A stretch of 16,529 nt of DNA from Candidatus Hestiella acidicharens (lineage in GTDB: Archaea > Thermoproteota > Thermoprotei_A > Sulfolobales > Acidilobaceae). Position numbers and translations under genes: made by a program. Positions 1,610 to 14,240 of the stretch are shown here, one piece after another (position 1 is the stretch's first letter; every line of letters begins with the position of its first letter). The stretch covers positions 1 to 16,529 of the forward strand of contig WAJZ01000049.1 of NCBI GenBank assembly GCA_015523575.1, read 5' to 3'. The notes below the pieces were generated by a model that saw nothing but the letters and a program-made list of their open reading frames with translations, was not told the DNA's origin and ran no database searches.

Positions 1610-2728
1610 ATGAATCCTAATTGGGATAATAACAGGAAGAAGGTCAAGGATTTAATGGAAAAGAAAGGTTTAGATGCGATAATCCTTACAGGCCAAGCCA
1701 ATATAATATATTCGACCGGGATAAGGGATCCAACGGAGGTTCTCATCCTCTCAAAGAACTGCCCAGACTACCTCCTAACTTCAAGCCTTGATTACTATAG
1801 GATGTTGAGCAGAACACCGAAAGACATCATAATAAAGGCATTCCACAGGCAGGGGGAGAAGGGGACAGAGCCACCAATACCTAAGGGTGATATCATCGAC
1901 GGTGGCATCCAAGAAGCCATTAAAAAGCTGCTATCAGAGTGTGGCGCAAAATATGGCTCTGACCTTGCTTGGAGCCTTTACCCTATAGGGAAATACCTTG
2001 TAGAGCTAGGCGTTATTGATATAAGCGATGAATTAGCAAAGGTAAGGGCAAAAAAGGATTCATGGGAGGTGGAACTCATAGAGGAATCCATAGGAGCTTC
2101 TGAAAAGGCACTAAGAGAATCCTTGGAAATGCTCGAGGAAAAACCAACAGAGAGGGAAGTAGAGGGAAAATTCTATTCCTCCCTAATGTCACAAGGGGCT
2201 TGGGGTGAATCTTTCCCAACAATAGTGGCATTTTATGAGAACACTGCCCTTCCACACTACAACCCTGGTAGCGTAATACTAGAGAGGCCTGGCCCTGTGC
2301 TTATAGACTTTGGGGCAAACATGAAAGGGTATATGAGCGATATGACCAGGTCATTATGGTTTGGGCCTGGCGGAAGGGAATACAAAAAGCTGATAGAGAC
2401 TGTGGAGGAGGCACAATCGCAAGCCATAGACATAATAGAACCTGGAATAGAAGCCTGGGTGCCAGACAACGCTTCTAGAAAGGTATTTGAGAGAGAAGGG
2501 ATCCTCAGGTATTTTAACCATGGACTTGGCCATGGCGTGGGAGTCGAGATACACGAAAGGCCTTATTTAAGGCCCAACGGAAATGAAGTGCTCGAAAAGG
2601 GGATGGTAGTAACAGTAGAACCTGGTATATATTACCCTGGGCTCTATGGTGTTAGGATAGAAGACATGGTATATATAACAGAAAGAAAGGCAAGGATTAT
2701 CACGAGGTTTTCAAGGATAATATACTAA
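1610..2728 (+). CDS. pepQ: Xaa-Pro peptidase, family M24B (prolidase type)
   Basis: This 372-residue cytoplasmic metallopeptidase of the pita-bread fold should cleave the bond before proline in dipeptides or short peptides. Residues 1-145 form the creatinase-like N-terminal domain. The catalytic domain follows, with all five dinuclear metal ligands visible: D233 in LIDFGA, D244 in YMSDMTRS, H308 in GLGHGVG, E337 in VTVEPGIYYPG and E351 in GVRIEDM. H216 (LPHYNPG) and H315 (EIHERP) are the usual extra active-site histidines. The length fits PepQ (about 350-370). It starts 10 bases after the L37e stop without a clear Shine-Dalgarno sequence, so co-transcription with the translation genes is likely. 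Whether it acts as dipeptidase or aminopeptidase P cannot be told from sequence alone, though the dipeptidase is the better fit by length. Confidence 0.92.
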   Translation: MNPNWDNNRKKVKDLMEKKGLDAIILTGQANIIYSTGIRDPTEVLILSKNCPDYLLTSSLDYYRMLSRTPKDIIIKAFHRQGEKGTEPPIPKGDIIDGGIQEAIKKLLSECGAKYGSDLAWSLYPIGKYLVELGVIDISDELAKVRAKKDSWEVELIEESIGASEKALRESLEMLEEKPTEREVEGKFYSSLMSQGAWGESFPTIVAFYENTALPHYNPGSVILERPGPVLIDFGANMKGYMSDMTRSLWFGPGGREYKKLIETVEEAQSQAIDIIEPGIEAWVPDNASRKVFEREGILRYFNHGLGHGVGVEIHERPYLRPNGNEVLEKGMVVTVEPGIYYPGLYGVRIEDMVYITERKARIITRFSRIIY

Positions 2729-2738
2729 CCTTGCTTTA

Positions 2739-3203
2739 TTACTTCCTAGTAGCATTTATGATTGCCCTAGTGTAGTTGTATTTCTTTATGTTGTGCCATT
2801 GGATGAGCATCAAAATCCCTGGAATAAGGTAAACTATCGTAACAATACCAACCACGACCTCTATAATTCCTATTACTAAGGCTGGGTTTTGGGCTTTTTC
2901 CGGTAAGTCATGGGAAAGCGGGAGATATACAAATGGAATGCTAAGCAGCGCTAAGGTTAAGTAAACTAGACCATAACCATAAAGCACATTAGATGCGAAA
3001 GATTTTAAGAATCCAGGAGTTATCCCGCTTATATTGTAATGATCTGTTTTTGTGATGTTACTAAGCTTTTGCGATACGATGCTATTGGGTATAGTGCTTA
3101 TTGCATAACCACCTAATATAACTATTATAGAAAGGAATATGGCTATTACTATTGATGCTATAGTATAACCCTTGCTCAAGCCTAGCGTGGTTTTGTCCTC
3201 CAT
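2739..3203 (-). CDS. Small multi-pass membrane protein, unknown function
   Basis: This 154-residue protein is not recognised as a member of a known family. Three hydrophobic segments are visible at about residues 13-36, 73-96 and 107-135; the last contains a PG and could be a re-entrant or kinked helix. The segment between the first two (about 37-72) is polar with two N-glycosylation sequons (N49IT, N57IS), suggesting it faces outward. The start is well supported: GGAGAGGTG lies just upstream of ATG 3203-3201. It converges on the peptidase gene with only 10 bases between the stops and has no partner on its own strand, so it is probably a single-gene unit. A real gene is likely from the clean open frame, the good ribosome binding site and the coherent topology. 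Confidence 0.7.
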   Translation of the reverse strand: MEDKTTLGLSKGYTIASIVIAIFLSIIVILGGYAISTIPNSIVSQKLSNITKTDHYNISGITPGFLKSFASNVLYGYGLVYLTLALLSIPFVYLPLSHDLPEKAQNPALVIGIIEVVVGIVTIVYLIPGILMLIQWHNIKKYNYTRAIINATRK

Positions 3204-3552
3204 AACACCTCTCCAAAAATAATTAACCTTAACAGGTATAAATCTCTTAAAAAAGGTTACTAAATGTTATGTAAATAAATTTCAAAAAAGAACTGGGTTT
3301 TTATTAAAGCCAAGTCCCGTTCTGCCTACCCGTTACTTTTGGCTAAAGTGTGAGCATCGTAATGGCTAAGGCTCCTCTCTTCTCGCCTTCATTAGAGACT
3401 CTCGGAGAAAACAAAAACCTACACGTTCAAGATCCTTAATACGCCACATCAATTCGGGCTTAACCTGCCCAGCACACCTGATACGGAGGGAAGAAAACCC
3501 TAACTTGCTTCTCTAATTAATAGAAAATATCTAAACCTTATGTTTTAATTAC
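3204..3552. other. Gene-free strip: promoter of the small membrane protein plus unassigned GC-richer sequence
   Basis: Bases 3204-3300 are A+T-rich and should hold the minus-strand promoter for the membrane protein. From about 3315 to 3500 composition shifts to higher G+C and short open frames appear on both strands, each broken by stops. One plus-strand piece (about 3406-3503) ends GLNLPSTPDTEGRKP before a stop; one minus-strand piece reads LMKARREEP before a stop. None matches a family I can name. It looks like eroded coding DNA, possibly an old mobile-element scar, but that is inference. No tRNA or clear RNA fold was recognised. Confidence 0.4.
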
Positions 3553-5028
3553 CTATGAAGCAGCTCCTTTTCCTTCTTTACCTTTAATACCGGAAACCAC
3601 CTTCGCATTATCTATAAGCTCTTGAATCTTAGACCTCATTTCACTTCTTAATGACAGTAACTCTGCCGCAGGTGAACCCCCTCCCTGTATAACCCCTACT
3701 AGGTGAGGACCAGCTACCCATAGTTGAAGTAGCCTAATAGCCCTCAACCTTTCCTCTGGCGTATAGGAGCTGTTACCTTTTATGGCAAGGGATACCTTTT
3801 CGCCAACCTTTATGTCTTTGATGGAAGGTGCATTAACGGTTATTCCACCACCTACGTCAGCTGCTGCCACTATAGCTTCCTTCAAATGCTCTATGGCATC
3901 TAGCTTAGCAATGTTTGCCAGCCTAAAGTTTGGTATGTACTCCCCGCTAGGATGCTTCCAGCCCTTGGCCATAGCTGCTATGCCGGAAGCATAAGCGGCT
4001 TCGCCGTGCCTCATAATGTCTAGCAACCTACCTTGGATGTAACTTGTGTTTAGCACACCATTAACGTCTGCAGCAAGGGCTGCAGACCCTAATATAGAAT
4101 CTGCAAACCCTGCCTTGCAAGCCCCTCCGCCTGCCCTGTGATGGGCAGCAAAGTATTCAACGAGCTTTCCAGTAAATTCATATTGGCCTTCCATAAACAC
4201 CCTTTCCTTAGGCACAAAGACGTCATCAAATATAACTATATAAGTACTCCTGTGGCCAAAGGGCGATGGATAGTCGGACTCACTTCCCATATCGCTTGAA
4301 ACCTTTTTCATGACATCCATAGGGTGCCACGCCGATATGAAGTAAATATTCTCTGTATCCGGTTTTATTGAAAATGCAACGGCATAGTCTTTTTCCAGCT
4401 CTTTCATCCCCTTAGTAGGTACTACCAAGAGCTCGTCTGCTAGGGCCGCGCCTGTAACGTGCATCTTCGCCCCCCTCACAACTATTCCATCCCTTCTTCT
4501 TTCAACGATACGAAGGTATGCCATCTCATTACCTTGCTCCAAAGGTCCTTTAGACCTGTCCCCTTTTGCATCAGTCATAGCTGTCTCAACTACTAGGTCT
4601 TTTGACTGTACTTCCTCGAGCCACTCTAAGAACCTCCTGTGATAATCAGTATTATATTTATTATCTATATCGAAGGTAGACGCAAACAACGCATTTATCC
4701 CATCATGACCAGTACAACGATAGTTGCAATTCGAGATACGGTAGTTTAGTATCCTTTGTGATTCTGCCCTTAGGAGCAGATCCTCTATACTCATTTCTAC
4801 ATTTACGAGCCTACTTACCTCTTCCCCTTTCCAATTCTTTGCTGTCAATATACCCCTATACTCTTCATTTAAGGCAAGCTCGTATGTCTTCAATATTACG
4901 TTAATAACCGGCTTTAGAACAGGGTTAGAAGTTACATCGTTTACCTTTTCTCCACCAACGTAAATATTAAGCCTATCCTGCCTTGCTCTTAACCTGTTTA
5001 AATATTCGCTTGGGGTACCTAACGCCAA
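3553..5028 (-). CDS. abfD: 4-hydroxybutyryl-CoA dehydratase / vinylacetyl-CoA isomerase
   Basis: This 491-residue flavin and [4Fe-4S] enzyme dehydrates 4-hydroxybutyryl-CoA to crotonyl-CoA by a ketyl-radical route. In Thermoproteota it is the key step of the hydroxybutyrate CO2-fixation cycles; in fermenters it serves GABA and succinate breakdown. The four cluster ligands known from the Clostridium enzyme are present: C101 and C105 (NCNYRCTGHDG), H297 and C304 (HHRAGGGACKAG). The Thr near residue 192 (MHVTG) and Lys305 also fit known active-site positions. The four-ligand set separates it from 4-hydroxyphenylacetate 3-hydroxylases. One oddity: the position of the Clostridium Tyr296 reads Gly301. 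Translation most likely begins at TTG 5028-5026, preceded six bases earlier by GGTGG; the first internal Met is far into the protein at residue 79. It lies 175 bases downstream of the urocanase gene on the same strand and has its own TATA-like element. Confidence 0.92.
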   Translation of the reverse strand: MALGTPSEYLNRLRARQDRLNIYVGGEKVNDVTSNPVLKPVINVILKTYELALNEEYRGILTAKNWKGEEVSRLVNVEMSIEDLLLRAESQRILNYRISNCNYRCTGHDGINALFASTFDIDNKYNTDYHRRFLEWLEEVQSKDLVVETAMTDAKGDRSKGPLEQGNEMAYLRIVERRRDGIVVRGAKMHVTGAALADELLVVPTKGMKELEKDYAVAFSIKPDTENIYFISAWHPMDVMKKVSSDMGSESDYPSPFGHRSTYIVIFDDVFVPKERVFMEGQYEFTGKLVEYFAAHHRAGGGACKAGFADSILGSAALAADVNGVLNTSYIQGRLLDIMRHGEAAYASGIAAMAKGWKHPSGEYIPNFRLANIAKLDAIEHLKEAIVAAADVGGGITVNAPSIKDIKVGEKVSLAIKGNSSYTPEERLRAIRLLQLWVAGPHLVGVIQGGGSPAAELLSLRSEMRSKIQELIDNAKVVSGIKGKEGKGAAS

Positions 5029-5063
5029 CGAAAACCACCAGTAGCTGTGTGCTAATAGAGGTT

Positions 5064-5073
5064 ATTATATTAA
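5064..5073 (-). promoter_or_regulatory. TATA-like box for the 4-hydroxybutyryl-CoA dehydratase gene
   Basis: Read on the minus strand, TTTAATATAA lies about 36-45 bases before the TTG start. With normal archaeal spacing this gives a short leader that still contains the GGTGG ribosome binding site. A second A+T-rich candidate lies near 5101-5112. This suggests independent transcription from the upstream urocanase gene. Confidence 0.45.
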
Positions 5074-5167
5074 ATGAGATGAGAAATAATTAATAAATTA
5101 AAATTTTATAAACGCTAAGTCGTTGTGCTGATACTACACTTACAAGCAAAATAAACATGATGTTATA

Positions 5168-5176
5168 GAAAAAAGG
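5168..5176 (-). terminator. Possible U-run terminator after the urocanase gene
   Basis: On the minus strand CCTTTTTTC occurs about 28 bases after the urocanase stop. Archaeal termination commonly occurs at such U-runs without a strong hairpin, and none is obvious here. Together with the TATA-like box further on, it argues against read-through into the next gene, though weakly. Confidence 0.35.
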
Positions 5177-5203
5177 TTCAATCATTATATCGGCATAGGA
5201 AAT

Positions 5204-7063
5204 CTATGTATTAAAAGGAGATCTATAGTTCCCCTTCCTCCTCTCGTATTCTTCTAAATCCTTTTTAACCCTATCATAGGTAAAATCAGAGATCCTTCCC
5301 TTACTTCTCGCCTCTTCTATAATCCTCTTGCTCTTCTCTTCGAGCATCGAAATTATTGGTATCCTTATGCCCTTTTCTCTAGCAACGCGTATTGATTTTG
5401 GATAGCCTGCATGTGCATGCCTTATAACCCCCATCCCTGGGTCGACCGTAAAGACCCTTAGTGCCTTTTTCTCAGCTAGCTGAGATCCATCGACAACCAT
5501 ACCAAAGCCCGTGTGAATAGCATAGCCTATACCAACCCCTCCGCCGTGGTGGAAGCAGGTCCAAGTAGCACCACTAGCCGTATTTAAGGCATAGTCAAGG
5601 ATAGGCCAATCACCTATTGCATCGCTTCCATCTATCATATTTTCTGTTTCTCTATATGGAGAGGCAACGCTCCCAGCATCGAGATGATCTCTTCCAAACC
5701 ATATTGGTCCGCTCAACTCTCCCTTTCTTACCATTTCGCTAACTACCTTCCCAAACAACGCCCTCTCTCCATAACCAAGGTATACAACTCTTGCAGGAAG
5801 CCCTTGGAAGTGTACATAATCATGGGCGGACTTTATCCACCTATACAACTTCTTGTTCCTCTCGAAAAATGTTATTAAAACGTCATCAAGCTTAAATATG
5901 TCCTTTTCGTTTCCAGTTAAACTTGTCCACCTAAAGGGTCCCCTTCCTTCTTCAAAGAGGGGTCTCATAAACTCCATTTGACCAGGTATCTTGAAGGCCT
6001 CCTTTACCCCTGCATCATAGGCCTGCTTCCTGAGGTTGTTTCCATATTCAAAGGTGACCGCGCCTCTAGCCATTAACTCTAGCATAAGCTGGACATGCTT
6101 TTTCATTGTTTCCTTTGACTTTACTATGTAGCCTTCTCTGTCCTCCTTCCTCAGCCTCTCGGCCTCCTCTACGCTCACGCCCTCAGGCACGTAAGATAGG
6201 GGATCGTGGGCGGGTGTTTGATCACTTAACAGGTCCGGCGTTATACCTTCCCTTACAAGGGTTCCAAGCAACTCGACAGCGTTTGCCTTCACCCCTATGC
6301 TGGTCGGTGTTTTGGACTTCTTTGCTTGCAAAGCCATGTCTATAGCCTTGTCTATGTCGTCTGTCCAAGTATCTAAGTAAGCAGTTTCTATCATCCTGTC
6401 TATCATCCTCTTATCTACATCAGCTATTAATGCAACCCCTCCAAGCATCTTTATTGCAAGTGGCTGTGCACCCCCCATGTTTCCAAGCCCGGCACTAACA
6501 ACAAACTTGCCTTCGAGACTCCCCCAATACCTCTCGGCCGCGGCCCCTATAGTTTCATAGGTTCCTTGCAATATTCCTTGAGTACCTATATATGCCCAGC
6601 ATCCAGCAGTCATCTGATGATAGCTTATTAGACCCATCTTTTCTAGCTCCCAAAAATATTCCCAATCAGCCCACTTCGGTACGAGCATGGCGTTACTCAT
6701 AACTACGCGTGGGGAGCCCTGGTAGAGCTTGAATATGCCCACTGGTTGACCACTCTGTATCACCAAGGTATCGTCGCTGTTCATAGTCAAAAGGGAATCA
6801 ACTATTGCCTCGAAATCATTCCATGACCTAGCAGCCTTACCGGTACCTCCATAAACTATAAGGTTCTTTGGATCCTTTGCAACCATGGGGTCTAAAACAT
6901 GGAAGAGCATCCTCAGAATTCCTTCTATCTGCCAATCCCTACTGTGTACATGGATTTCCTCCCCCTTTATCGCCTTTACTGTCTTCGTCTCCGGGTCATA
7001 ATAGCCTTCCGAGATAAGTTCCTCTATGGGCCTCCCCTTATAGTTCTGGTACAATTGAGACAC
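5204..7063 (-). CDS. hutU: Urocanate hydratase (urocanase)
   Basis: This 619-residue enzyme should convert urocanate to imidazolone-propionate with tightly bound NAD+ as electrophile, the second step of histidine degradation. Family marks: YGGTGKAARSW (71-81), QSGQPVGIF (103-111), the NAD-binding glycine motif SAGLGNMGGAQP (190-201), GRDHLDAGSVASPYRETE (457-474), and NTASGATW with HHGGGVGIG (494-513). The PROSITE urocanase motif FQGLPxRICW reads FQGLPARVVY here (419-428), so the cysteine linked to the active site in bacterial enzymes is Val427. The protein is longer than the usual 550-560 residues, largely through a charged helical C-terminal tail after about residue 570. The start could be GTG 7063 or TTG 7054; GAGGTG sits six bases before the TTG, matching other starts in this window, so a 616-residue form is quite possible. 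It diverges from the formimidoylglutamase-like gene. Confidence 0.93.
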   Translation of the reverse strand: MSQLYQNYKGRPIEELISEGYYDPETKTVKAIKGEEIHVHSRDWQIEGILRMLFHVLDPMVAKDPKNLIVYGGTGKAARSWNDFEAIVDSLLTMNSDDTLVIQSGQPVGIFKLYQGSPRVVMSNAMLVPKWADWEYFWELEKMGLISYHQMTAGCWAYIGTQGILQGTYETIGAAAERYWGSLEGKFVVSAGLGNMGGAQPLAIKMLGGVALIADVDKRMIDRMIETAYLDTWTDDIDKAIDMALQAKKSKTPTSIGVKANAVELLGTLVREGITPDLLSDQTPAHDPLSYVPEGVSVEEAERLRKEDREGYIVKSKETMKKHVQLMLELMARGAVTFEYGNNLRKQAYDAGVKEAFKIPGQMEFMRPLFEEGRGPFRWTSLTGNEKDIFKLDDVLITFFERNKKLYRWIKSAHDYVHFQGLPARVVYLGYGERALFGKVVSEMVRKGELSGPIWFGRDHLDAGSVASPYRETENMIDGSDAIGDWPILDYALNTASGATWTCFHHGGGVGIGYAIHTGFGMVVDGSQLAEKKALRVFTVDPGMGVIRHAHAGYPKSIRVAREKGIRIPIISMLEEKSKRIIEEARSKGRISDFTYDRVKKDLEEYERRKGNYRSPFNT

Positions 7064-7066
7064 CTC

Positions 7067-7160
7067 TGCTCACAGGTAATGGAATCCTTTTTCAAAATAA
7101 TAAACCTATTGTGAAATAAGGATTTATTTTAAGATAACCACAATTTTAAGGGTGAAAGTT
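7067..7160. promoter_or_regulatory. Divergent promoter region between hutU and the ureohydrolase gene
   Basis: This short A+T-rich spacer serves both genes. For the plus strand, TTTATTTTAAG (about 7123-7133) is a TATA-like element ahead of GGTGA (7151-7155) and ATG 7161. For the minus strand, the complement of AAAATAATAAA (about 7094-7104) is TATA-like ahead of the GTG/TTG start. A shared spacer suggests joint control of the two histidine-degradation genes. No clear operator palindrome was recognised. Confidence 0.45.
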
Positions 7161-8090
7161 ATGGAAGAAAACAAAGGAAGCTGGGAGAGCTATGTTATGA
7201 AAGATAAGAAGTCGCTCCTGAGAGATGCAGGTGATTTGAGGATCCGTGACCTGAAGAAAGTTGTGCCATTAATAGGGATTCCATGGGATTGGAACACCTC
7301 AGGTAGACCCGGTGCTAGGTTCGCACCCGATACTATCAGAAAGGAGCTTTTCTCACTAACCCCACTTTCCCATGATCTAGGAAGCATAGATATTGGGTTT
7401 GAAGACCTAGGCGATGTAGCCGTAGTACCCGGGGATATAGCGGAGACAAGGAAAAGGGTGGAAAAGGTTTCCAAAGCCGCAATAGGGGTTGCCCTTTCTA
7501 GGAATGTACCCGTAGCGTTCCTTGGGGGTGACCATGCCATAACTGGGTGGACATTTGATGCAACCGCATCGCTTCTGCCAGAAACGTCGATCCTTGTGTT
7601 AGATGCACATTACGATATAAGGAAAACTTTCGAGGGACTGACAAGTGGCTCTTGGCTATATGACGTTTGTAGCAAGAGAAAGGTGAACGTAATGGTAGTA
7701 GGGGTTTCCGACTATTCGAACCCTGTTTATGCTGCCGAAAGGGCCAAGGAGCTAGGAATTACTGTCTTGACAAGGTCAAGGTTGTTGACAAACTTTGAGG
7801 AGTCACTAAAAGAAATAGAAAGCTTTTCGAAAGGCAAGAAAATTTACCTAAGCATAGACATGGATCACCTAGACCAGTCCTTTTCACCAGGAGTGAATTC
7901 TCCTACCCCGCTTGGCCTTACGCCCTATGAGTCCATTAGGATAATAGATAAGGTAATAGGTTCTTCAAGCAGGCTTATAGGGGTTGACGTAACTGAAGTT
8001 GCACCTCCGTATGATATAGGTAGCATGACTTCTAAGCTCTCGGCAAAGCTATTGCTAAGGTCTATTCACCTTGCAGTAAGCAAGAAATAG
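7161..8090 (+). CDS. hutG: Ureohydrolase (arginase/agmatinase family), probably formimidoylglutamase
   Basis: This 309-residue protein belongs to the binuclear-manganese ureohydrolases. All six metal ligands are visible: H125 (GGDHAI), D148, H150 and D152 (DAHYD), D233 and D235 (SIDMDHLD). The late EVAPPYD segment (279-285) is also family-typical. Agmatinases and arginases usually read DP after the last ligand motif and then GTGTP; here it is DQSFSPGVNSP, closer to the PGVSAP type of HutG. With urocanase diverging from the same promoter region, hydrolysis of N-formimidoylglutamate to glutamate and formamide is the best guess. Agmatinase or guanidinobutyrase cannot be excluded; the latter would feed 4-aminobutyrate metabolism. 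The start is ATG 7161 with GGTGA five bases upstream; an in-frame GTG at 7152 overlaps that site and is less likely. Confidence 0.75.
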   Translation: MEENKGSWESYVMKDKKSLLRDAGDLRIRDLKKVVPLIGIPWDWNTSGRPGARFAPDTIRKELFSLTPLSHDLGSIDIGFEDLGDVAVVPGDIAETRKRVEKVSKAAIGVALSRNVPVAFLGGDHAITGWTFDATASLLPETSILVLDAHYDIRKTFEGLTSGSWLYDVCSKRKVNVMVVGVSDYSNPVYAAERAKELGITVLTRSRLLTNFEESLKEIESFSKGKKIYLSIDMDHLDQSFSPGVNSPTPLGLTPYESIRIIDKVIGSSSRLIGVDVTEVAPPYDIGSMTSKLSAKLLLRSIHLAVSKK

Positions 8091-8861: not shown

Positions 8862-9164
8862 CTATGCTGGCGTCTTTAGATTGCTGTCATTATTTATATC
8901 TCCTAGAATTATCGATTCGAATAAATCCTTTAGTGGTTCTTTTTCCTTTATTTTTTCAAGCACTTTTTTTCCGATAATTGTCGTTTGATATATTTTATAG
9001 CTACCTCTTGAATATAAGGCCTCTAAAAGTCCAAACTCGTTCAGGCATTGGATCATCGCCAACACTTTATACCTGGGTATGTCAAGCTTTTGGGCCACAT
9101 CTCCGGGTGATAGGGGGCCATAGCTATTAAATGCTTCTAAAATTCTCTCTATTACGCTTGACAA
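8862..9164 (-). CDS. Small winged helix-turn-helix DNA-binding protein
   Basis: This 100-residue protein has the plan of archaeal one-domain winged-helix regulators. A first helix (SVIERILEAFNSY) is followed by GPLSPGDVAQKLDIPRYKVL as the helix-turn-helix (about residues 16-35), a recognition-side helix (MIQCLNEFGLLEAL), a basic two-stranded wing (SRGSYKIYQTTIIG, about 52-65) and a C-terminal helix. No metal- or ligand-binding domain is present. The start is TTG 9164-9162, with GGTGA six bases upstream on the minus strand; no ATG is available near it. It diverges from the large glycoprotein gene across 83 bases, so local control of that gene or of itself is plausible but inferred. Confidence 0.75.
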   Translation of the reverse strand: MSSVIERILEAFNSYGPLSPGDVAQKLDIPRYKVLAMIQCLNEFGLLEALYSRGSYKIYQTTIIGKKVLEKIKEKEPLKDLFESIILGDINNDSNLKTPA

Positions 9165-9247: not shown

Positions 9248-11128
9248 GTGAACAAAAATATCAAGGCAATAGCTGTGGTCTTACTAATCCTGTTTTTGCC
9301 TATAATAATACCAGTAGGCCATTCATATACTTATTCGAGGTCACTTTCTTACTATCCATCATATTTGATGCTAGGTAATTGGGTTAATACGAGCATGTTA
9401 ATTATAACGGGCATCCCAATTCCCAATGCATCTCTAAATAGATTAAAGAATCGCAATACCACAATAACCAATATATACCTCGGTGGATATGGTATTATAC
9501 CACTCAATATAACCTTCTTTCTTGGGCGCATCTCATCAACAAGGCTTACATTAAACAATACTGTTAATATAAGGGGAGAAGATGGAAAAATTATTATAGC
9601 GTCGCCACCTCATTTGCCTTCTTTTATAGCTATCTTAAAGCCAGCAAAATATATAGGGGTATACATAACCATACCAAGAAGCTATAGCATCACATCATAT
9701 GGTAACTATACAGTATTACTATATAATAAAAAACATATTAGAATTTCCATTTATTACAATGGAAGTAAAGAAGTAATTCATTTAGCAAATGAAACCTTGA
9801 TAAAGCTAAAATATAAGGCAAATGGCTACTTAGAGCTCGGCATTAACACCACGAAATATTACCCGTCAAAATACATGATAGCATATAATGAGAGAGAAGT
9901 TAATAATTGGTTATATAGGTCCAAGATGCTTAAGGCAAGTATTAATAGAGACCTAGCCTATGAATACTTTCTCAGCCTTCTATTCTTAAAAGACCAGCAA
10001 AATCCATACCTCGGTATCTTTGCGTCTTCCCCCTCTCCAAGGTGTTTGTATTCTTCGATAGTAGTTTCTTCATTCGCTTCCTTAGCCCTTCAAGACTCTG
10101 GCCATTACATCTCTGCCAGTAAATTCTGGCAGTGGATGGCTGATACCGCTAAACAGAACTCTACTTGGTATAAGGAATACAACTTTTATACCGGTCGTCC
10201 CTTATCTAAAAGCTTTCCATCACTTATTGCTATTGGGCTTTTCCAGTTGGGTATATATGACTATTTCCAAATAACACATAACATAACGTTTCTGTCATCG
10301 GTATTGCCGGCGTTGAACAAAACGTTAAACTTTGAGTTATCTCAGATAAGAAATAATAGGTATTCCATGCTACCTATGGGAGTAGGTGTTTGGGGGAACA
10401 AGACTGCATACCACTTTTCCTCAGAGGCTATAGATGATTTAGGTATTTATTATGTATCCAAGATATACCAATACCTAGGAATAAACACCACAACATTAAA
10501 AAACTACGAGAAGGTTTTAAACCAAAGTATCATAAAGTATTTTTGGAATGGCAATTTCTTTTATTCGTCTATAGCATTTAATTCAACGTCAACAGGTAGA
10601 GAAAAAGTCATCCCAATCCCTCCATACTATGACTCTTTAACCATCCTACCTATGGCTCTCGGATACCTCCAGCCAAAGTCATCTTACGCTTCTAGCGACG
10701 TAATTGCAGAGGTCTCAAGGCTAGCAGTTTCGGGTGGAATAGCTAGGTATGTAAATGACTTCTATCATTATAATGTTACTTTACATGATAGCTCTACTTT
10801 TAACCCACCCTGGGTTGTAACCACTATGTTTCTATCGTATTATTATGATAAGCTAGGTAGCTATAGTAAATCCCTAGCATTACTTAACTGGGTTTTTAAG
10901 CACTCACAGAGCGGTTTAATCCCACAGGCAATAGATCCGAAATATGGGAATCCGTTGCCTACAACTTCCCCATCAAGCTGGTCCACAGCAATGTTTGTGT
11001 TATCCCTCTTGGGTATTCATAATACTGGTAAGCCGAGCAAAAACAGCATTATGGCATGGGTAATTATAATAATGTTACTGGTAGTATTATCTTACGTTAT
11101 GGAAAGGAGAAGTGTCTTAAAAAAGTAG
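9248..11128 (+). CDS. Secreted, membrane-anchored glycoprotein with a degenerate GH15-like alpha/alpha barrel
   Basis: This is a 626-residue cell-surface protein. Residues 4-25 form a signal peptide and about 603-617 a C-terminal membrane anchor followed by a basic tail (MERRSVLKK), so the bulk faces outward. About 17 NxS/T sequons are present, fitting heavy N-glycosylation. Residues 30-225 look beta-rich. Residues 230-590 are helical and follow the order of GH15 glucoamylases: SPSP (261-264), NPPWVVTTMFLSYYY (519-533), then GLIPQAID (556-563) and SSWSTAMFVLSLL (576-588). The catalytic features are altered: the usual PEQ holding the general base reads PQA (Q560), the WxRD sugar-binding motif after SPSP appears as VVSS, and no WE general-acid motif is seen. 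GTG 9248 is the start, with GAGGATGA upstream. It may be a binding protein, a barrel with changed chemistry, or a distant family of similar fold. Confidence 0.75.
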   Translation: MNKNIKAIAVVLLILFLPIIIPVGHSYTYSRSLSYYPSYLMLGNWVNTSMLIITGIPIPNASLNRLKNRNTTITNIYLGGYGIIPLNITFFLGRISSTRLTLNNTVNIRGEDGKIIIASPPHLPSFIAILKPAKYIGVYITIPRSYSITSYGNYTVLLYNKKHIRISIYYNGSKEVIHLANETLIKLKYKANGYLELGINTTKYYPSKYMIAYNEREVNNWLYRSKMLKASINRDLAYEYFLSLLFLKDQQNPYLGIFASSPSPRCLYSSIVVSSFASLALQDSGHYISASKFWQWMADTAKQNSTWYKEYNFYTGRPLSKSFPSLIAIGLFQLGIYDYFQITHNITFLSSVLPALNKTLNFELSQIRNNRYSMLPMGVGVWGNKTAYHFSSEAIDDLGIYYVSKIYQYLGINTTTLKNYEKVLNQSIIKYFWNGNFFYSSIAFNSTSTGREKVIPIPPYYDSLTILPMALGYLQPKSSYASSDVIAEVSRLAVSGGIARYVNDFYHYNVTLHDSSTFNPPWVVTTMFLSYYYDKLGSYSKSLALLNWVFKHSQSGLIPQAIDPKYGNPLPTTSPSSWSTAMFVLSLLGIHNTGKPSKNSIMAWVIIIMLLVVLSYVMERRSVLKK

Positions 11129-11269: not shown

Positions 11270-12670
11270 ATGGCGATAGACATGGAACATGCTTGGATAC
11301 CAAACAGCAAAGAAGAGATAAAGAGAGAAATGCTTGATTTTATTGGTGTAAAAGATGTTTTGGATCTTTATAATGATGTACCAAAAGATATATTAATTTC
11401 AGAAGATAAGTGGAACTCCCTTAATATTGGGATGAAACGACCACTTGATGAAATCGAAGTATCAGAGGTAGTTGAAGATGTTCTAAACAAAAATATTGTT
11501 TTTGGGCCTAGAAAGCAATTCATAGGTGGAGGTGCATGGCCTCACTATATTCCAGCTTCAGTTAGATACCTTGCTGAGAGAGGGGAGTTCCTTACCGCAT
11601 ACACCCCATACCAGGCAGAAATCAACCAAGGGCTCATGCAAACGCTATTTGAGTATCAAAGTATGATGGCAGATCTGCTTGACATGGATGTTGTAAATTC
11701 AAGCATGTACGATATGGCAAGCTCCTTGGGAGAGGCCATATTAATGGCAGCAAGGATAAAGAAGAAAAATAAAGTGATAGTTCCAGAGGTCATTAATCCT
11801 TTTCACCTTTCCGTTGCGAGAAGCTATTCAGCCCCTCATGGGATTCAGCTAAAGAAATATAAAATTGACAAAGAGACTGGATACCTAGATATCGAGGACG
11901 TCAAAAATAAAATAGATGATGATACTATAGCCGTTTACCTAGAATATCCTTATCAATTTACTGGAGTAGTTGATATAAATGCAAAGGCTTTAGGCGAAAT
12001 AGCGCACGAGAAACAAGCCCTGTTTATTGTAGGAGTAAACCCTATCAGCCTAATGCTTTATAAGCCACCAGGGGAATTAGACGCTGACATTGCGATAGGT
12101 GAGGGGCAACCTCTGGGACTGGGTTTGAATTTTGGCGGTCCATATCTCGGTATCTTTGCGACTAAATGGAAAAATGAGCTGGTGAGGCAAATGCCTGGGA
12201 GGATAATTGGTTTGACGGAGGATAGCAGTTCTTCAAACGCCTATGCGATGGTATTACAAACAAGGGAACAACACATAAGGAGGTCGAAAGCTACAAGCAA
12301 CATAACTACAAACTCAAGCTTAAACGCTATGATAGCAGCTTTCTACATTGCATTACTAGGCAGAAAAGGCCTAAGGGATGTAGCGGAAGCCATTTGGTAT
12401 AGGAGCCATTATGCATCTCACGAGCTCAAGAAGATAGGGCTGGATTCGCCTTTGTTCACCGGCGAATTCTTTGGCGACTTCATTGTTGATTTTAAGAAAG
12501 ATTTTAAAGAGATAAGAAAAAACATGTTGAAAGAGGGTATCCTCCTAGGCATACCTCTAGCTAATTACGTAGAATGGGCAACGGAGTCCTGGGGTCTTCT
12601 CAGCTTTACGGAGGTTCACCACAAGGAGGATATAGACTTTGTTCTTAATAAAATTCGAGAATTTATGTGA
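11270..12670 (+). CDS. gcvPA: Glycine dehydrogenase (decarboxylating) subunit 1
   Basis: This 466-residue protein is the alpha subunit of the split P-protein of the glycine cleavage system. With subunit 2 it decarboxylates glycine and passes the aminomethyl group to the lipoyl arm of GcvH. Family stretches are seen: IGGGAWPHYIPASVRYL, TPYQAEINQGLMQTLFEYQ and MYDMASSLGEAILMAARI in the first third; GQPLGLGLNFGGPYLGIFA near the middle; and RMPGRIIG-like and LQTREQHIRRSKATSNI motifs after it. This subunit has the aminotransferase-like fold but lacks the PLP lysine, which is supplied by subunit 2. Its length is normal (about 440-470). The ATG at 11270 appears leaderless; a second ATG four codons on is possible. 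Subunit 2 follows after 13 bases. The T-, H- and L-protein genes are not in the window. Confidence 0.95.
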   Translation: MAIDMEHAWIPNSKEEIKREMLDFIGVKDVLDLYNDVPKDILISEDKWNSLNIGMKRPLDEIEVSEVVEDVLNKNIVFGPRKQFIGGGAWPHYIPASVRYLAERGEFLTAYTPYQAEINQGLMQTLFEYQSMMADLLDMDVVNSSMYDMASSLGEAILMAARIKKKNKVIVPEVINPFHLSVARSYSAPHGIQLKKYKIDKETGYLDIEDVKNKIDDDTIAVYLEYPYQFTGVVDINAKALGEIAHEKQALFIVGVNPISLMLYKPPGELDADIAIGEGQPLGLGLNFGGPYLGIFATKWKNELVRQMPGRIIGLTEDSSSSNAYAMVLQTREQHIRRSKATSNITTNSSLNAMIAAFYIALLGRKGLRDVAEAIWYRSHYASHELKKIGLDSPLFTGEFFGDFIVDFKKDFKEIRKNMLKEGILLGIPLANYVEWATESWGLLSFTEVHHKEDIDFVLNKIREFM

Positions 12671-12683
12671 GAGGTGGTAGGCT

Positions 12684-14240
12684 ATGTTTAGGCAGGCAAA
12701 ATGGGATGAACCAAGCATATATGAGTTGAGTAACGGCAGAGAGGGTATCAGGTTTAGTCACATTAATGATGCATTTAGGAATATAATGGGAGAGATATCA
12801 ATTGATGCTAGTGTGAAAAGGGAGAAAGATCCCCAGTTACCTGAAGTCAGCGAAGTTGAAGTAATTAGGCATTATACAAAACTTTCTGAGATGAGCTATG
12901 GTGTTGATAATGGACCCGTACCATTAGGAAGTTGTACCATGAAGTACAACCCTAGAATTGCGCTAAGGTACTCAAGCGATAATAGGTTAGCTTTCATTCA
13001 CCCATTGCAACCTGAGGAGACCATTCAAGGCTTGCTAAAGGCATTATATGACCTTCAATTTTGGTTAGCAGAAATAACTGGGATGGATTATTGCACTTTG
13101 CATCCGGCCGCAGGTGCCCAGGGAGAGCTTACTGGTATATTAACGATAAGGAAGTATCATGAGATAAAGGAACAGATAAGCACTAAAGATGAAATACTTA
13201 TACCCGACTCTGCGCATGGAACGAATCCAGCTAGTGCCATTATGGGTGGTTTTAAAGCAATAGAGATACCAACAGCCGATGATGGTAACATAGATTTCGA
13301 TGCATTTTTGGCATCGCTAAGCGAAAGAACAGCAGGATTTATGATAACAAATCCAAATACCCTAGGTCTCTTTGAGGAAAGGATACTCGATATAGAGAGA
13401 AATGTGCATGAAAAGGATGGGTTGTTATACTATGATGGCGCAAATTTGAATGGCATATTGGGAAAGGTCAGGCCTGGTGACATGGGCTTCGATATTGCTC
13501 ACCTGAACCTACACAAAACGTTTTCATCGCCTCATGGCGGAGGTGGACCGGGCTCGGGGCCTATCTGCATAAAGAACAGGAAAGTGGTTAATGGCATAAC
13601 ATTAAAGGATCTAATTCCAGGACCAATGATCTATTATGATGAGAAGGAAGGCCTATATAAAATAAAATGGCCGGGGAGGTATAGTCCAGGGTTACTGAAG
13701 GCGTTCTTTGGTAATGTGCAACAACTGCTGTGGACCTATGTCTATATCCTTTCATTGGGGCCCCAGGGCCTCAAAGAAACTGGCGAAGTTTCCGTTATAA
13801 ACACAAATTATTTTGTAAAGCTAATGGAAAAATACAGAGGGTATAGCATCCCATATGGAAAGAGGTTTAGAAAGCATGAGGTCGTACTAAGTTCTGAACC
13901 ACTTCATAAAGAAACAGGAGTTACTGCTGAAGATATAAGCAAAGGCCTTCTTGACGTGGGCTTTCACGCCCCAACCATTTACTTCCCATTAATAGTAAAG
14001 GAAGCATTAATGACCGAGTTTACAGAAGGTGAGACCAAAGAAAACATAGAAAGGTATGCCAAGAGGCTTGGAGAGATAGAAGACATTGCAAGAAAGGATC
14101 CTGAAGAACCGAAAAGGTGGCCAAAAAACACGTCGGTCGGAAGGGTCAACATGGTAAAGGCAAACCATCCAAAAACTCTCATTCCTACTTGGAGAATAAA
14201 GATCCTGAGAGAAAGGGGCTTAATAAAAACCTTGCGTTAG
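12684..14240 (+). CDS. gcvPB: Glycine dehydrogenase (decarboxylating) subunit 2, PLP-binding
   Basis: This 518-residue beta subunit of the glycine cleavage P-protein carries the cofactor. K278 in IAHLNLHKTFSSPHGG is the expected Schiff-base lysine, followed by the glycine-rich GGGGPGSGP. Other marks are LGSCTMKYNPR (81-91), HPAAGAQGELTG (140-151), PDSAHGTNPASA (174-185) and ITNPNTLGLFE (221-231). Its length is normal for archaeal and Gram-positive GcvPB. GAGGTGG just after the gcvPA stop serves as ribosome binding site for ATG 12684, so the two genes form a co-translated pair. The gene ends 17 bases before the convergent GAPDH stop, leaving little room for terminators on either side. Confidence 0.97.
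   Translation: MFRQAKWDEPSIYELSNGREGIRFSHINDAFRNIMGEISIDASVKREKDPQLPEVSEVEVIRHYTKLSEMSYGVDNGPVPLGSCTMKYNPRIALRYSSDNRLAFIHPLQPEETIQGLLKALYDLQFWLAEITGMDYCTLHPAAGAQGELTGILTIRKYHEIKEQISTKDEILIPDSAHGTNPASAIMGGFKAIEIPTADDGNIDFDAFLASLSERTAGFMITNPNTLGLFEERILDIERNVHEKDGLLYYDGANLNGILGKVRPGDMGFDIAHLNLHKTFSSPHGGGGPGSGPICIKNRKVVNGITLKDLIPGPMIYYDEKEGLYKIKWPGRYSPGLLKAFFGNVQQLLWTYVYILSLGPQGLKETGEVSVINTNYFVKLMEKYRGYSIPYGKRFRKHEVVLSSEPLHKETGVTAEDISKGLLDVGFHAPTIYFPLIVKEALMTEFTEGETKENIERYAKRLGEIEDIARKDPEEPKRWPKNTSVGRVNMVKANHPKTLIPTWRIKILRERGLIKTLR

What the first reader, a model, noticed from the sequence alone, without database searches (positions are those of the whole stretch)
9248..11128. Surface glycoprotein with a GH15-like barrel that seems to have lost its catalytic residues
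The C-terminal half follows the order of glucoamylase-family motifs (SPSP, NPPW, GLIPxxID, SSWS). The position of the general-base Glu (PEQ in GH15) reads PQA with Gln560. The WxRD substrate motif after SPSP reads as VVSS, and no WE general-acid motif is seen. Conserved fold with all three active-site features changed, a signal peptide, a membrane anchor and about 17 sequons point to a surface role in glycan binding or cell-wall structure, or to new chemistry. The motif matching was by eye.
Basis: partly seen in the sequence, partly recalled or inferred. Interest (0 to 1): 0.7.

Follow-up and report, generated by a model that had tools for sequence, protein, structure and literature searches.

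The report
Surface glucoamylase relative without active site
A hot-spring archaeon keeps, at its old chromosomal place, a cell-surface relative of starch-digesting enzymes whose active site has been taken apart while the rest of the protein is still under selection, so it most likely does a new, non-digesting job.

The parts
9248..11128 (+). ORF of the GH15-like pseudoenzyme, 626 aa
9165..9247 (.). Upstream intergenic region with a TATA-like stretch, between the divergent wHTH gene and the ORF; 79 of 83 bases identical in the sister lineage L002
   Evidence: counted on the alignment, against pS 0.343 in the gene; it is shared with the divergent gene; TATA reading by eye
9248..9337 (+). Signal-peptide-like hydrophobic N-terminus (residues 1-30)
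   Evidence: hydropathy
9359..9847 (+). N-terminal beta-sandwich (about residues 38-200)
   Evidence: predicted strands; inside the range matched to 9ju0
9938..11023 (+). (alpha/alpha)6-type barrel (about residues 231-592)
   Evidence: predicted helices; fold match
10055..10066 (+). Former W-x-R-D motif (residues 270-273), now S-I-V-V
10220..10228 (+). Former E-x-D (residues 325-327), now S-L-I
10379..10396 (+). Former D-L-S-V-W-E (residues 378-383) with the general acid, now G-V-G-V-W-G
10418..10420 (+). Former invariant Trp391, now Ser
10745..10771 (+). Kept outer-cleft columns (R500, D504, Y506, H507, Y508); R500 and Y506 align with the +1 subsite residues of dextran dextrinase
   Evidence: roles from PMC12446779 (passages)
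10925..10927 (+). Former general-base Glu560, now Gln
11042..11107 (+). C-terminal membrane anchor (about residues 599-620)
   Evidence: hydropathy; helix 598-625; dN/dS 0.06 over residues 593-626
8862..9164 (-). Divergent small wHTH gene (related to NCBIfam SSO5209 family, below its cut-off), part of the neighbourhood
11270..14240 (+). gcvPA and gcvPB, the conserved downstream neighbours

Best explanation
It is a pseudoenzyme: the vertically inherited, membrane-anchored surface GH15 protein of this Caldisphaera/Acidilobus lineage, which in the Hestiella line lost its catalytic base, later its acid, and the side chains that hold the -1 glucose, probably after a second, intact secreted GH15 copy entered the genome with sugar-transporter genes. 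Its fold, anchor and outer cleft are under purifying selection. It most likely works as a non-hydrolysing scaffold or binding partner on the outside of the cell. Shown by sequence: homology, residue loss, the shared loss in three records, selection, synteny, the second intact copy. Inferred: expression, export and glycosylation, absence of hydrolase activity, that the second copy came first, and what the protein binds.
Against: One sister keeps the general acid (E383), so loss is stepwise and a residual or altered activity there is not excluded. The former conserved columns differ between the lineages at least as fast as the rest (3 of 24 columns changed in all three; 4.5 nonsynonymous differences per 57.5 sites in 25 columns, 0.078, against 0.051 for the gene), so there is no sign of a new conserved site there. 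A test that changed columns sit more often in pocket-side loops than other conserved columns was not significant at any of three thresholds (17 of 62 against 7 of 46, P 0.10 at the 90% threshold; P 0.19 and 0.74 at stricter ones). I found only three dead records, two of them 98% identical, and the protein searches scored only the 7992-7993 candidates sharing most words. The order of events is not shown: the intact pair has lower dS (0.197) than the dead pair (0.459).
Confidence: 0.8

Rival explanations
1. Glycan-binding surface protein (lectin-like), a special case of the best explanation: the barrel lost hydrolysis but still holds alpha-glucan through the outer cleft (+1 and further subsites), keeping polymer at the cell for the intact paralog.
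For: R500 and Y506, which align with the +1 residues R791 and F797 of 9ju0, and W382, D504, H507, D514 and W522 are kept in all three dead records. The barrel is at least as constrained as the N-terminal part.
Against: Of the -1 side chains named for 9ju0, the five that are conserved in this family (A, Y, W, R, D) are all replaced, so the tightest sugar site is gone. Pfam found no carbohydrate-binding module at E<=1.
Confidence: 0.3
2. Hetero-oligomer partner or regulator of the intact paralog in the same genome, another special case.
For: Dead and intact copies co-occur in both Hestiella-like genomes and in none of the other 46 family genomes searched. Dextran dextrinase is a homodimer (PMC12446779, passages); glucoamylase-like domains without detectable activity sit in the phosphorylase kinase complex (PMC10978961, passages).
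Against: The two copies are only about 40-43% identical and the intact one groups with Sulfolobales (99/95), so no inherited interface is expected. Only two genomes support the co-occurrence.
Confidence: 0.15
3. A dying gene: recent loss of function, not yet broken.
For: Active-site residues lost one after another (E383 last); long stem (0.81 against 0.32 changes per column for its probable sister P0003).
Against: dN/dS 0.115 after the loss, open frame in three records, conserved upstream region and anchor.
Confidence: 0.07
4. New chemistry with different catalytic residues, for example a one-carboxylate phosphorolysis or transfer.
For: L002 keeps the acid and has lost the base; GH94 and GH65 enzymes share the fold; a new Glu310 stands at a column that is Arg in 39 of 39 intact rows.
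Against: The window lacks the acid too; -1 binding residues are gone; new acids common to the dead records in the barrel are only D235, D299, E310 and E452, and none could be placed in the pocket without coordinates.
Confidence: 0.04
5. Assembly or sequencing artefact.
For: The window genome and L002 are metagenome assemblies, and P0001 is labelled MAG.
Against: Three separate records share in-frame replacements at 24 conserved columns, with synonymous divergence of 0.46 between two of them, and conserved synteny.
Confidence: 0.02

Closest known systems
Secreted, membrane-anchored archaeal GH15 proteins of Caldisphaera, Acidilobus and Sulfolobales (e.g. P0009 of Caldisphaera lagunensis, source name 'glycosyl hydrolase, glucoamylase')
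   Same: Length, leader, beta-sandwich plus barrel, C-terminal anchor; same gcvPA-linked place in 6 of the 7 other family genomes with the secreted form
   Different: They keep WxRD's Arg-Asp, the general acid and the general base (48 of 48 rows); the window keeps none
Dextran dextrinase, PDB 9JU0 (homolog of GH15, PMC12446779)
   Same: Best fold and profile match; sandwich plus barrel
   Different: Active; Glu671, Glu858, Arg542, Asp543, Trp540 and Tyr535 present; anomer-retaining transglucosidase
Bacterial glucoamylase, PDB 1LF6 (T. thermosaccharolyticum)
   Different: Active inverting glucohydrolase
Phosphorylase kinase alpha and beta subunits, domain D1 (PMC10978961)
   Same: Glucoamylase-like domains, no detectable hydrolase activity; the beta one lacks some catalytic residues
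   Different: Subunits of an animal kinase complex; not of this family; the alpha one keeps both Glu
4F2hc/SLC3A2 (recalled, from no call)
   Same: Single-pass surface protein with a dead glycosidase-like ectodomain
   Different: GH13-like fold; transporter partner known

Membership tests
GH15 (fold and descent) | (alpha/alpha)6 barrel matching solved GH15 structures | tested here: met
GH15 (fold and descent) | Sequence descent from GH15 proteins | tested here: met
   51% to P0003 and about 48% to Caldisphaera GH15 proteins over 94-100% of the query; clade support 100/100
GH15 (fold and descent) | Pfam PF00723 over its gathering score | tested here: not met
   No Pfam match at E<=1 for the window, none at E<=0.01 for P0002; the five intact relatives tested all pass 22 bits
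GH15 glucohydrolase (active) | General acid Glu in the alpha5-alpha6 loop | tested here: not met
   G383 in window and P0001, E in L002; E in 48 of 48 intact rows
GH15 glucohydrolase (active) | General base Glu in the alpha11-alpha12 loop | tested here: not met
   Q560 in all three; E in 48 of 48
GH15 glucohydrolase (active) | -1 subsite Arg-Asp (WxRD) | tested here: not met
   V/I and V/A at 272-273; R and D in 48 of 48
Pseudoenzyme | Lost catalytic residues with purifying selection on the protein | tested here: met
Pseudoenzyme | No catalytic activity | not testable with these tools
   needs purified protein

The most novel reading that the evidence does not exclude
An ancestral surface glucoamylase was freed from digestion when an imported, transporter-linked copy took over, and was rebuilt as a non-catalytic surface protein that holds glucan or cell-surface partners through the outer half of the old cleft: a surface-anchored GH15 pseudoenzyme in archaea, caught with its loss in steps (base and sugar site first, acid later).
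Probability: 0.3. Interest if true: 0.6.

Novelty: new variant of a known kind. Interest (0 to 1): 0.45.

Why it matters
Pseudoenzymes of glycoside hydrolases are well known in animals and plants (recalled), and glucoamylase-like domains without activity in phosphorylase kinase, but I found no report of a surface-anchored GH15 pseudoenzyme in archaea in the listings of searches, which cover an open-access library only. Here intact orthologs, the second copy and a half-way sister are all in hand, so the order of loss and the retained function could be tested directly. It also shows that Pfam annotation misses such a protein.

Tried and rejected
Rejected: unrelated fold; pseudogene; chance motif matching.

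Led nowhere or came out against a simple story: (1) Clustering of changed columns in pocket-side loops was not significant. (2) I thought the dead protein might serve as binding protein for the sugar transporter, because no SBP_bac_1 or SBP_bac_8 match was found in G000 and G013 while the three Caldisphaera-genus genomes G011, G012 and G014 have matches. But in G013 the transporter cluster itself is damaged (a 3' remnant of its binding-protein gene with an in-frame stop, and a MalK in two frames), so this gives no support. In G000 no MalF match was found at all, but the contig ends inside MalK and the assembly is 76% complete. (3) The lower dS of the intact GH15 pair (0.198) and of the neighbouring IMPase gene (0.162) against MalK (0.38-0.41) in the same stretch leaves the transfer history unclear. 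(4) A second protein search with the alignment brought no new clusters. (6) No paper was found for 'Hestiella', nor for phosphorylase kinase together with glucoamylase and GH15; with other words found the kinase papers. (7) read some loci on the wrong strand and the leave-one-out control held an error of mine; replace them. (8) The phmmer alignment of the window alone with 9ju0 is out of register at the former WxRD; I used the profile alignment.

Rows dropped: L018 (frame broken, run of N) and L019 (fragment) were left out of all counts from then on; eight exact duplicates and L072; the broken gene of G165 (L088, L091) was left out. The 48 rows include near-identical ones and two cut ones (L010, L012) and are not 48 independent cases.

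Full report
What is there. The window is contig C49 of a 1.06-Mb, 76%-complete assembly. Among named genome contigs the closest match is Candidatus Hestiella sp. S016_56 (89%; taxonomy, Acidilobaceae); the 98% protein P0001 bears the name Caldisphaeraceae archaeon. ORF 9248-11128 encodes 626 aa with a hydrophobic N-terminus, a C-terminal hydrophobic segment and 17 sequons. Pfam finds nothing at E<=1; NCBIfam finds the oligosaccharide-amylase model TIGR01577 at 1.9e-18, over residues 275-588, below its cut-off.

The active site. In 9JU0, Glu671 is the acid/base catalyst, Glu858 the nucleophile (the general base position of inverting GH15), Arg542 and Asp543 hold O4 and O6, and Ala529, Tyr535 and Trp540 form a patch for the -1 unit; Arg791 and Phe797 serve +1 (PMC12446779, passages read). 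The profile alignment of the family with 9ju0 (chain position minus 19 gives the paper's numbers, my count) pairs these with window columns 383, 560, 272, 273, 260, 266, 270, 500 and 506. Counts in intact rows: R272 48/48, D273 48/48, E383 48/48, E560 48/48, Y266 48/48, W270 47/48, A260 47/48, D327 48/48, D378 48/48, W391 48/48. The three dead records (window, P0001, L002) read VIV, VVA, GGE, QQQ, CCC, SSS, SSS, III, GGG and SSS. R500 and Y506 are kept in all. A further -1 contact of 9JU0, Glu874, aligns with Leu in 47 of 48 intact rows, so this family differs there anyway. Of 14 conserved charged columns the window has lost eight. New acids shared by the dead records at barrel columns where under 15% of intact rows are acidic: D235, D299, E310 and E452; no pair is evident.

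Chance. Of 88 columns conserved in at least 97% of 39 intact rows, 20, 20 and 19 are changed in the three dead records; held-out intact rows change at most 9 of 93, median 1. Seven of the seven -1/catalytic columns lie among the 20 (P 1.2e-5; L002 6 of 7, P 3e-4). The loop-clustering test was not significant.

Selection. Between window and L002, dN/dS is 0.115 (0.084-0.153), 0.088 in the barrel and 0.158 in the N-terminal part. Five neighbouring gene pairs have 0.031-0.084; five other window genes had no match in L002. The intact paralog pair in the same two genomes has 0.211 (0.142-0.310). In the 83-base intergenic stretch before the start 79 bases are identical (counted), though that stretch also serves a divergent gene. 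The formerly conserved columns do not differ less between the lineages than the protein as a whole. So the protein is constrained, but the old site is not visibly conserved anew.

History. On a tree built without the 25 changed columns, the dead records are one clade (100/100) inside the 11-row Caldisphaera clade (100/100), with P0003 as probable sister (87/83, not starred) and a long stem of 0.81 (several long rows elsewhere in the tree are unsure). The neighbourhood is shared: gcvPA lies directly downstream in 8 of 9 genomes with the secreted form, and in G014 about 5.5 kb away on the other strand; the divergent wHTH lies next to the gene in 6 of 9 (for G011 only 1.5 kb on that side was seen). 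So the dead copy is at the ancestral place. Of 48 family genomes searched, 9 have the secreted form, and only G000 and G013 have it twice. Their second copy is intact in every catalytic column, 91% identical between the two, and falls in a 9-row group (99/95) with Sulfolobales rows and one Marsarchaeota row. It follows a MalK-like gene in both, and MalF and MalG in G013, the order found in a Sulfolobaceae locus; the G000 contig ends inside MalK. The simplest reading is import of a transporter-linked GH15, then release of the resident copy. The order of the two events is inferred.

Function. GH15 enzymes use both Glu residues as catalysts (PMC12446779, passages), so the window protein should not hydrolyse; activity was not measured. 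The conserved fold, anchor (dN/dS 0.06 over residues 593-626) and kept outer-cleft columns suggest a surface scaffold or binding role. I put 0.8 on a non-catalytic, selected surface protein, with about 0.3 on glucan binding and 0.15 on a partner role to the intact copy as special cases of it.

Known parallels. Human phosphorylase kinase alpha and beta carry glucoamylase-like domains without detectable activity, beta lacking some catalytic residues (PMC10978961, passages). So a non-catalytic GH15-like domain is a known kind; a surface-anchored archaeal one at the ancestral locus, in a genome with an intact second copy, is not described in the listings I saw. The library holds open-access papers only.

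Noticed in passing
L006:5859-8968 (G013:C19): The sugar-transporter cluster beside the intact GH15 copy is damaged in G013: only about the last quarter of the binding-protein gene was matched, with an in-frame stop, and MalK lies in two frames. In G000 the part of MalK on the contig is open.
   Followed up: partly
G000 and G013 whole genomes: No SBP_bac_1 or SBP_bac_8 match in either genome, while G011, G012 and G014 have them. The second, weaker-matching GH15-like ORF (open frames of 615-639) seen in the 7 other family genomes with the secreted form is not listed for these two. Assemblies are 76% and 92% complete.
   Followed up: partly
L088 and L091 (G165, same order): The secreted GH15 gene is split by about 1.25 kb that holds a transposase-like ORF (name by eye).
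   Followed up: no
L006 and L030: Synonymous divergence is uneven along one short stretch: GH15 0.198 and IMPase 0.162 against MalK 0.38-0.41, which hints at recombination between lineages.
   Followed up: no
window 1610-8090 against L002: Five window genes upstream of the wHTH (M24 peptidase, small membrane protein, HpaB-like, HutU, ureohydrolase) have no match in the 9 kb held upstream in L002, while the downstream side is syntenic.
   Followed up: no
window 3553-5028: HpaB-like protein (PF11794, PF03241) far below the 4-hydroxyphenylacetate monooxygenase cut-offs; Cys and His spacing looks like 4-hydroxybutyryl-CoA dehydratase (by eye, recalled).
   Followed up: no
window 5204-8090: Urocanate hydratase (TIGR01228, over cut-off) and a ureohydrolase closest to formimidoylglutamase (below cut-off) side by side: probable histidine degradation.
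   Followed up: no
window 2739-3203: Membrane-protein-like ORF of 154 aa with no Pfam match over cut-off and no NCBIfam match at E<=1e-10.
   Followed up: no
P0006, and L010: P0006, otherwise intact, has Leu in place of the WxRD Trp; the L010 match lies in two pieces near its start.
   Followed up: no
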